Shown piece after piece: positions 44,805-46,423 of a DNA stretch of 64,000 nucleotides. The stretch covers positions 744,001-808,000 of the forward strand of contig CAJNOJ010000015.1 in the NCBI GenBank assembly GCA_905250025.1, in the 5' to 3' direction. Every line of letters starts with the position of its first letter. Position 1 is the stretch's first letter. This DNA is from Adineta ricciae (Eukaryota; Rotifera; Eurotatoria; Adinetida; Adinetidae). The position numbers were made by a program, and so were the translations under genes. The notes under the pieces are model-generated. The model was given only the letters and a program-made list of their open reading frames with translations. It was not told the DNA's origin and made no database searches.

Positions 44805-45404
44805 ATGTAAGCATCTATTTTGTGATTAAATCTGATATTTAAATAATGAGTTTTTATCTAGGGAAGGAGGTATCGCTAATCCAAATTATCAACCCGGCAA
44901 TGTTTATTATACATCGCCAGGTCAATTTCAACATTTGCAAGGACAAGTCAATGACGTATATAGGATAAAACGCATTGGCTTCTTGCTAAAGATTAAATTT
45001 ATTATAGGTGACGGAAATCATGAGAAATAACATTCGATTAGGATTGGAACGTGGTGCAAATCTTGATGATCTTGAAATTAAAGCAGGTAAAATATCCCGA
45101 TTGAGATGAATTTTATTGATCACAACTGTTCAGAGGATTTGAGTAATACTTCCAATCAATTTGCCAACAATGCACACCGAGTTCGACAAAAATTCTGGTG
45201 GCAAAATGTGCAGGTAGATCCACACACATCTATTTTATCAATATCCTCTTCGTTTTATAATAGATGTGGATTCTCATTGGTGTAATCGTTATTATTCTTA
45301 TTGTTATCATCGTTGGTAAGATGAACACAGTTCTATCTCGAAAGATTATTCTTATTCGATTATTTTTAGTACTTTCTGTCCTTGCCGCACAGAAGAAAAT
45401 TTAA
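44805..45404 (+). CDS. VAMP: Synaptobrevin/VAMP-like R-SNARE, copy A
   Basis: 113 codons in six exons. The first coding exon contributes only AT (44805-44806). A 55-bp GT-AG intron follows, and G at 44862 completes ATG, giving MEGGIANPNYQP. The SNARE motif runs from about residue 31 (VNDVTEIMRNNIRLGLERGANLDDLE), with the zero-layer Arg at about 47. A basic/aromatic juxtamembrane stretch (RQKFWWQNVQ, like KYWWKN of VAMP2) leads to the tail anchor MWILIGVIVIILIVIIVVLSV. R-SNAREs on vesicles pair with Q-SNAREs for fusion. All intron positions and phases match copy B, 400 bp downstream. It lacks a long N-terminal extension and so is of brevin type. Confidence 0.92.
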
Positions 45405-45797
45405 TTCGAAATTTTATCTCAACACAAGCAGTCAATGTCTTTCATTTTCTCGTTTTTGGTCATAGTTATATGTTTGTTATCAATCTGTATGTTTTTTTTT
45501 CTAAATAAACAAACCGCGGAATATTTGCTAGAAAATCTCAAAACTATGAGCATATCATATACAAACGTTAAGTAAATCTTGCAATTGCGCATCGTGGATA
45601 TGACAATAGTGAGTGAAGTTGTTGTTCGAAAATGTCGATACGTCATTAACGCGCTTGTAGATAATGCAATTTGTCTTTTACTGAATCATATCATAAACTG
45701 ATAAAAACTCCTGTGACTAACCAACAAACTGATATTGAGATATGTAAGCGTTTCTTTTCGGTTTCATTTTCGATTCTTATTTTTTCAGAAACAACTA
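45405..45797. other. Spacer between VAMP paralogues with poly(A) signal
   Basis: AATAAA at 45504-45509, 100 bp after the VAMP A stop. The remainder is the copy B promoter or 5' UTR; no other gene. Confidence 0.5.
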
Positions 45798-46423
45798 TGT
45801 AAGAACTTTCACTAGCCTACGTTTCTTAGAATTAGTTTTCCGTGTTACTCTAGGACAGCGACATTTAACAATCCAAATTATCAACCGACTAGCGTTCGTT
45901 ATACTCCGTCGACACATATTCAACAATTGCAGGACCAAACAGACGAAGTCAGTTTCGAAGAGAGTTCGATTCCGGTGTCGCACATATGTTCAATTAATTG
46001 ATTTAGATTGTAAGTATACAGAAGAAAACTTTATCAGGATTACTCGATCGTGGAACAAAACTTGATGATTTAGAGTATAAAGCAGGTTAGTGGAAGAAGA
46101 TTGTCGAAAAGGAAAAAGAGACTTTCTCACATTCATTTAGATGAAATGGCCCGAGCTTCAGATATGTTCACTATCACCACAGGAAAACTCAAAAAACGGT
46201 ATCAAATCAAGAACTTTAAGGTAAACATGTCTATAACCTTCACCATTCGATAATAACCTTTCACATCTTTTATAGATGACTATTATTCTAGCTGTTATTG
46301 TCATCGTCATAATAACAGCTATTATAGGTATATAAATGTTCTTTTTTTTTTGTTTTCATTGTATAAGAATACATTTGATTCATTCTAGTTACTGTTGTAC
46401 TATCAGTCAAATCCAAAGCTTAG
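45798..46423 (+). CDS. VAMP: Synaptobrevin/VAMP-like R-SNARE, copy B
   Basis: 113 codons, the same length as copy A. AT (45798-45799) is joined to G at 45854 over a 54-bp intron to form the start codon of MTATFNNPNYQP. The NPNYQP block is shared with copy A. The SNARE motif (TDEIVSIQKKTLSGLLDRGTK) keeps the zero-layer Arg at about 47. The juxtamembrane segment is KLKKRYQIKNFK, without copy A's Trp pair. The anchor is MTIILAVIVIVIITAIIVTVVLSV. Introns after codons 32, within codon 58, after codon 86 and in the anchor coincide with copy A, so the two arose by tandem duplication and have since diverged well apart in the SNARE core. Loss of the WW pair suggests altered membrane coupling or a different compartment (inference). 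Confidence 0.92.

What the first reader, a model, noticed from the sequence alone, without database searches (positions are those of the whole stretch)
44805..45857. Start codon split by an intron (AT|G) in both tandem VAMP paralogues
In copy A, AT at 44805-44806 meets GTAAGC and the acceptor TATCTAG is followed by G GAA GGA; in copy B, AT at 45798-45799 meets GTAAGA and ACTCTAG is followed by G ACA GCG. Both then read into the shared NPNYQP block. No other in-frame ATG precedes that block. Initiation therefore depends on splicing in both copies, so an unspliced transcript cannot make the SNARE. Keeping it through a duplication with diverged proteins suggests age and possibly control of expression by splicing.
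Basis: seen in the sequence. Interest (0 to 1): 0.75.

Follow-up and report, generated by a model that had tools for sequence, protein, structure and literature searches.

The report
Split start codon in VAMP genes
Two neighbouring rotifer membrane-fusion genes have a start codon cut in two by a small intron, and because six related gene types in the same genome share the cut, it looks like an old inherited layout rather than a new switch.

Summary
Copy A: AT 44805-44806, intron 44807-44861, then G GAA GGA. Copy B: AT 45797-45798 (stated one base high), intron 45799-45853, then G ACA GCG. Each gives a complete 113-aa Synaptobrevin-family protein with five introns in identical positions; neither has another in-frame ATG before the SNARE motif. 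An allelic-looking contig (C92), a diverged homologue (C30/C19) and three further VAMP/synaptobrevin types share the split: 14 of 14 selected copies, six types, AT|GT 51-68 nt before exon 2, purine at -3 in all. Nine other VAMP-like loci read as an intact ATG. So the intron is an old, family-level position here. Control by splicing is not supported: intron 1 diverges like introns 2-5 (12/164 vs 49/641, p = 1). Start-splitting introns are described as relatively rare, so this is a new member of a known kind. A mouse Vamp2 passage is compatible with an early first intron but does not fix it. No RNA evidence was available.

The parts
44805..44806 (+). Copy A: AT, first two bases of the start codon, end of exon 1 (5' end of exon 1 unknown)
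   Evidence: identical on C92
44807..44861 (+). Copy A intron 1, 55 nt, GTAAGC...CTAG, phase 2 in codon 1; unspliced it reads ATG TAA; contains an out-of-frame ATG at 44846
44862..44955 (+). Copy A exon 2: G of the start codon, then EGGIANPNYQP...QVND
45008..45086 (+). Copy A exon 3 (VTEIMRNNIRLGLERG..., first half of the SNARE motif)
   Evidence: coordinates computed from its exon and intron lengths
45134..45213 (+). Copy A exon 4 (second half of the SNARE motif, QKFWWQNVQ)
   Evidence: computed likewise
45264..45315 (+). Copy A exon 5 (transmembrane)
45370..45404 (+). Copy A exon 6, ends at TAA
45742..45743 (+). Copy B: a second, upstream AT followed by GTAAGC; joined straight to exon 2 it would also give ATG
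   Evidence: present on C92
45744..45788 (+). Copy B: possible 45-nt leader intron GTAAGC...TTTTTTCAG, or outron end for spliced-leader trans-splicing; this acceptor scores 10.3 and lies 10 nt before the AT|G donor
   Evidence: inference; no RNA
45797..45798 (+). Copy B: AT, first two bases of the start codon (finding says 45798-45799)
45799..45853 (+). Copy B intron 1, 55 nt, GTAAGA...CTAG; unspliced it reads ATG TAA
45854..45947 (+). Copy B exon 2: G of the start codon, then TATFNNPNYQP...QTDE
46007..46085 (+). Copy B exon 3
   Evidence: computed from its lengths
46141..46220 (+). Copy B exon 4
   Evidence: computed likewise
46276..46327 (+). Copy B exon 5 (transmembrane)
   Evidence: computed likewise
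46389..46423 (+). Copy B exon 6, ends at TAG

Best explanation
Copies A and B are ordinary R-SNARE (synaptobrevin/VAMP) genes. Their first intron is a constitutive 55-nt spliceosomal intron of phase 2 inside codon 1. The spliceosome joins AT to G and creates the AUG; exon 1 is otherwise 5' leader. The intron is an inherited position shared by six synaptobrevin/VAMP types in this genome, and it persists by descent. Because the donor is GTAA, unspliced RNA carries AUG-UAA at this point instead of the SNARE start; this follows automatically from the donor consensus and needs no selection. Shown: anatomy, intact reading frames, the shared position and the comparison of allelic-looking copies. Inferred: that splicing occurs as drawn, that it is constitutive, and that the position is older than this lineage.
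For: Complete 113-aa proteins with Synaptobrevin domains, best match among PDB sequences VAMP2 (E 3.7e-18 for A, 1.4e-14 for B). Identical phases and equivalent positions of all five introns in A, B, C30 and C19. AT|GT[AT]A 51-68 nt upstream of exon 2 in 14 of 14 selected copies of six types, against 3.0% of background acceptors (12 of 403), and a purine at -3 in all 14. dN/dS between allelic-looking copies 0.13 (A) and 0.15 (B), so both look under purifying selection; synonymous sites of A against B are saturated, so the pair is old. Intron 1 diverges like introns 2-5. A and B intron-1 donors (5.7, 5.3) and acceptors (6.1, 6.3) in the window score within the range of their other introns.
Against: No RNA-seq or RACE, so the true 5' exon is unproven. 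On a small matrix (12 introns; training acceptors 4.8 to 11.8, donors 5.2 to 10.5) several intron-1 sites of relatives score low: acceptors C30 -0.4, C19 1.1, sybB -1.1 and 0.5, sybA_C24 2.7, sybA_C35 4.1, C164 3.0, A on C92 4.5; donors sybB_C76 4.1, sybA_C76 5.1. Acceptor-like sites occur upstream of several AT donors, so the leader may be more complex. The gene copies counted were chosen by their exon-2 start. Age outside this genome is not shown: the one mouse passage found also fits an intron wholly in the leader.
Confidence: 0.84

Rival explanations
1. Splicing of the AT|G intron is a regulated gate: retained-intron RNA meets AUG-UAA, ribosomes stall or terminate and the mRNA is lost, so SNARE output is set by splicing of intron 1.
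For: ATGTAA in both genes and both allelic-looking copies. An AUGUAA in a 5' leader causes stalling and mRNA decay in Arabidopsis NIP5;1 (PMC11915504, passages). No in-frame ATG upstream of exon 2 in A, B or C30 before a stop.
Against: Intron 1 is not more conserved than introns 2-5. Start-stop arises automatically from any GTRA donor after AT. One copy (sybA_C76) has GTTAGT and no start-stop, and three of 13 copies have an in-frame upstream ATG in the genomic frame.
Confidence: 0.06
2. The real first exon lies elsewhere and the AT|G match is fortuitous; exon 2 is joined to a coding or leader exon with a different ATG.
For: No transcripts; copy B has a second AT|GTAAGC donor and a strong CAG acceptor upstream; low scores for intron-1 acceptors in some relatives.
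Against: 14 of 14 selected copies of six types show the same arrangement at 51-68 nt against about 3% chance per site; no in-frame ATG elsewhere upstream of A, B or C30 before a stop.
Confidence: 0.06
3. Not exclusive with the best explanation: the short first exon is also a landing site for spliced-leader trans-splicing. The leader is joined a few to about 45 nt before AT, and the cis AT|G intron must be used because a leader joined to the exon-2 acceptor would leave no start codon.
For: This genome has 41 copies of a 23-nt element one base from the published bdelloid spliced leader; those read are followed by GTAAA. Copy B has TTTTTTCAG (score 10.3) 10 nt before the AT donor; six of six synaptobrevin-type copies have an acceptor-like site 38-46 nt before theirs, scores 4.5 to 7.7. 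The leader ends GAG (PMC3795323, passage), so joining it to exon 2 would give no ATG.
Against: No trans-spliced reads. Random 100-nt windows reach 4.6 at the 75th and 7.7 at the 95th percentile, so only copy B's site stands out; in sybA on C35 and C24 other sites score higher; copy A's (3.0, 0.2) and those of C30/C19 are weak.
Confidence: 0.3

Closest known systems
Introns disrupting the start codon (phase 1 or 2 in codon 1), Nielsen and Wernersson 2006, PMC1626468
   Same: Intron lies inside the initiator codon
   Different: In what I saw (first part and passages) they call such introns relatively rare and study the phase-0 class after the ATG; here the class recurs across a gene family of one genome
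Mammalian synaptobrevin genes (mouse Vamp2)
   Same: R-SNARE gene; a site 22 bp after the start codon lies in the second exon (PMC9884502, passage), so the first intron is no later than that
   Different: Exact intron position not known to me; it could be in the leader; copies A and B are diverged paralogues
AUG-stop minimal uORFs (NIP5;1 AUGUAA, PMC11915504, passages)
   Same: Unspliced A and B RNA would contain AUG-UAA
   Different: In NIP5;1 it is in the 5'-untranslated region of the mRNA; here it exists only if the intron is retained
Bdelloid spliced-leader trans-splicing (PMC3795323, PMC1925144, passages)
   Same: Near-identical leader genes are in this genome
   Different: Use on these VAMP mRNAs is untested

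Membership tests
Synaptobrevin / R-SNARE (PF00957) | Profile match above the curated cut-off | tested here: met
   A 99.6, B 69.5, C30 103.7 bits; cut-off 26.4
Synaptobrevin / R-SNARE (PF00957) | Central-layer Arg in the SNARE motif (feature and position recalled) | tested here: met
   LER in A and LDR in B align with LER of VAMP2
Synaptobrevin / R-SNARE (PF00957) | C-terminal hydrophobic anchor after the SNARE motif | tested here: met
   MWILIGVIVIILIVIIVV and MTIILAVIVIVIITAIIV; match runs to residue 115 of the VAMP2 chain
Start-codon-splitting spliceosomal intron | GT-AG intron between bases 2 and 3 of the initiator ATG | tested here: met
   Sequence level
Start-codon-splitting spliceosomal intron | Spliced mRNA with the junction | not testable with these tools
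   No RNA data
Splicing-controlled gene (regulated intron retention) | Extra constraint on the intron relative to its neighbours | tested here: not met
   12/164 vs 49/641, p = 1.0, three allelic-looking pairs
Spliced-leader trans-spliced gene | Leader on the mature mRNA | not testable with these tools
   Leader genes present, no RNA

The most novel reading that the evidence does not exclude
In this rotifer the synaptobrevin/VAMP family keeps its start codon split so that cis splicing, in competition with spliced-leader trans-splicing, decides whether the mRNA has a start codon at all: correct cis splicing makes AUG, retention exposes AUG-UAA, and trans-splicing to exon 2 removes the start. 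Vesicle-fusion capacity could be shut down as one set, for example during drying.
Probability: 0.05. Interest if true: 0.8.

Novelty: new member of a known kind. Interest (0 to 1): 0.27.

Why it matters
It shows one uncommon intron class recurring across a gene family in one genome, which helps gene annotation: short first exons that end in AT are easily missed, and automatic gene models could lose or misplace the start of such VAMPs. It also gives a simple general rule that needs no selection: an AT|G intron with a GTRA donor turns unspliced RNA into an AUG-stop. The position could serve as a marker for the age of the synaptobrevin gene layout. The claim of control by splicing is not supported.

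Tried and rejected
Paper searches: start codons split by introns (20 of 12,749 listed, 2 listed of 3), gene structure of synaptobrevin genes, clinical names of variants in such introns (none), rotifer spliced leader (20 of 46 listed), AUG-stop (12 of 46 listed). Only PMC1626468 and one passage in PMC9884502 bore on the intron. PMC10102358 (passages) names a lost initiator Met in VAMP2 disease but no gene structure. The 1990 paper on the human synaptobrevin genes, sought by a recalled PubMed number, is not held, so I do not claim its content. Ciona Vamp1/2/3 (PMC10497037, one passage and one section) gives exon numbers but no start position. PMC4927625 and PMC11593774 (passages) held nothing on this. 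The exact published spliced leader is absent; with up to 3 mismatches 46 matches appear, 41 of them one identical sequence. Tested and rejected: extra conservation of intron 1.

Loci left out of the 14 of 14 count: L009 and L011 (called VAMP4-like from recall of an acidic stretch, not tested), L010, L012, L013, L014, L015, L016 and L021 read, by eye, as an intact ATG; L020 has ATA where its relatives have ATG; the starts of L025 to L028 were not determined. The 14 copies were chosen because exon 2 begins with G in frame, and the AT donor was then looked for at 48-70 nt (one search listed every AT|GT from 35 to 900 nt upstream, last five shown). In one search the unspliced-ATG listing for copy B began one base late, so B's own ATGTAA is cited. 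The notebook entry has copy B coordinates off by one or two bases; the report's are recounted. On checking this report I found that the mouse Vamp2 passage also fits an intron wholly in the leader; I took it out of the evidence for the best explanation and lowered its confidence from 0.86 to 0.84, and raised the misplaced-exon rival from 0.05 to 0.06.

Full report
What is there. Copy A (44805-45404) and copy B (45797-46423) are tandem, same-strand genes. In A, AT (44805-44806) is followed by GTAAGC, and the intron ends CTAG at 44861; the next base G completes ATG, followed by GAA GGA. In B, AT is at 45797-45798 (one base below the finding), the intron is 45799-45853, and G ACA GCG follows. With the other introns removed, both give complete 113-residue proteins with introns at residue/phase 0/2, 32/0, 58/1, 85/0 and 102/1. 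Both match Pfam Synaptobrevin well above its cut-off (99.6 and 69.5 bits against 26.4). The best match among sequences of solved structures is VAMP2. Both keep the arginine that aligns with that of the VAMP2 central layer, and a C-terminal hydrophobic anchor.

Is another start possible? In the genomic frame of exon 2 a stop begins 29 nt (A) and 41 nt (B) upstream, with no ATG between. Exon 2 has no Met in either gene; the first internal Met lies within the SNARE motif. In unspliced A the AT|G site reads ATG TAA; the next ATG (44846) opens a 40-codon out-of-frame reading frame across exon 2. So the observation, and the statement that unspliced RNA cannot make the full SNARE from an upstream ATG, hold for A and B at sequence level.

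Relatives in the same genome. Contig C92 carries the whole tandem pair at 94% (A) and 96% (B) identity, collinear over 9.5 kb at 94%; the GTAAG donors and CTAG acceptors of both first introns are unchanged. Contigs C30 and C19, another allelic-looking pair 93.7% alike over 9.2 kb, carry a diverged homologue (MTTNPGYQ..., MTSNPGYQ...) with AT|GTAAAT...CACAG|G and five introns at equivalent positions. What I call synaptobrevin type A (contigs C76, C35, C24), type B (same three contigs) and a third VAMP type (two genes on C164) also have AT|GT before a phase-2 exon 2. In all, 14 of 14 copies of six types show AT|GT[AT]A 51-68 nt upstream, and all 14 have a purine at -3 of the resulting ATG. The background rate for ATGT[AGT]A about 50-70 nt upstream of YAG|G in the window is 12 of 403. 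These copies were selected by their exon-2 start, so this is a family description, not a blind sample. Of the 20 loci fetched for PF00957 matches, nine (L009 to L016, and L021) read by eye as an intact ATG; L020 has ATA there; the starts of four (L025 to L028) were not determined; the other six (L017, L018, L019, L022, L023, L024) hold split-start copies.

Splice-site quality. On a matrix made from 12 other introns of A, B and C30, intron 1 of A and of B in this window scores within the training range for donor and acceptor. Some relatives score low: acceptors of C30 (-0.4), C19 (1.1), sybB on C24 and C35 (-1.1, 0.5), sybA on C24 and C35 (2.7, 4.1), C164 (3.0) and A on C92 (4.5), and the donors of sybB and sybA on C76 (4.1, 5.1). 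The matrix is small; this stays a point against certainty.

Age and selection. A and B share 35% identity over 113 codons with saturated synonymous sites, while the allelic-looking copies of each differ with dN/dS 0.13 and 0.15. So both genes appear functional and their split is old. Type B synaptobrevin lacks the intron before VVDIM yet keeps the start-codon intron (sequence). Outside this genome I have only one passage: a mouse editing paper places a site 22 bp after the Vamp2 start codon in its second exon (PMC9884502). That puts the first intron no later than there; it fits AT|G but also an intron wholly in the leader, so it proves nothing about ancestry.

Does splicing control expression? 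If intron 1 held control sequences it should change less than its neighbours. Over three allelic-looking pairs it differs at 12 of 164 sites, introns 2-5 at 49 of 641 (Fisher p = 1.0). AUG-UAA in unspliced RNA is present in both copies, but it is the automatic product of AT followed by a GTAA donor. In the 13 copies, twelve have GTAA and one (sybA_C76) GTTA. Three of those 13 (type B on C35 and C24, and one gene on C164) have an in-frame ATG upstream in the genomic frame; the one on C24 lies inside intron 1, the other two lie upstream of the AT donor and count only if the transcript reaches them. AUGUAA in a leader causes stalling and decay in a plant gene (PMC11915504, passages), so the gate remains a possible but unsupported reading.

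Trans-splicing. The genome holds 46 matches to the published bdelloid leader with up to 3 mismatches (reversed control 0), 41 of them one identical 23-mer; those read, at 12 loci, are followed by GTAAA. A paper seen in passages reports this kind of leader in two bdelloid species and none in a monogonont (PMC1925144), so the genome is most likely a bdelloid's. Copy B has a strong acceptor (10.3) 10 nt before its AT donor and a second AT|GTAAGC at 45742-45743. The six synaptobrevin-type copies have acceptor-like sites 38-46 nt before theirs, but at scores (4.5 to 7.7) that random 100-nt windows reach at about the 75th to 95th percentile; A, C30 and C19 have only weak ones. Without RNA this stays open.

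Comparison with what is known. Introns that disrupt the start codon are stated to be relatively rare (PMC1626468, first part and passages). The case is therefore a well-defined family of a known, uncommon kind. Among the listings I saw no paper describing it for VAMP genes; some listings were capped, few papers were opened, and most subscription papers are not held.

Noticed in passing
G000 contigs C2, C6, C8, C43, C77, C79, C99, C146 (L037-L048): Spliced-leader RNA genes: 41 identical copies of TGCTTATTACAACTTACCAAGAG (first base T, not G as published), many as divergent pairs about 153 nt apart.
   Followed up: partly
window 45742-45798: Copy B has two successive AT|GTAAG donors separated by a strong TTTTTTCAG acceptor; either donor joined to exon 2 would give ATG. 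Both are present on C92.
   Followed up: partly
L017, L018, L019: Two synaptobrevin types sit as tandem pairs on three contigs; the second type has lost the intron before VVDIM but kept the start-codon intron.
   Followed up: partly
L010, L012, L013, L016, L020: A set of VAMP-like genes with the SNARE motif in one exon; in L010 and L012 the ATG directly follows an AG acceptor-like site (TTTTCAG|ATG); L020 has ATA where the others have ATG, so may be broken.
   Followed up: no
window 45948-45953: Copy B intron 2 has an unusual donor, GTCAGT, in both allelic-looking copies.
   Followed up: no
contig pairs C15/C92 and C30/C19: Collinear pairs about 94% alike over more than 9 kb; C15 against C30 matches only in short stretches of the VAMP gene at DNA level (one, two).
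   Followed up: partly
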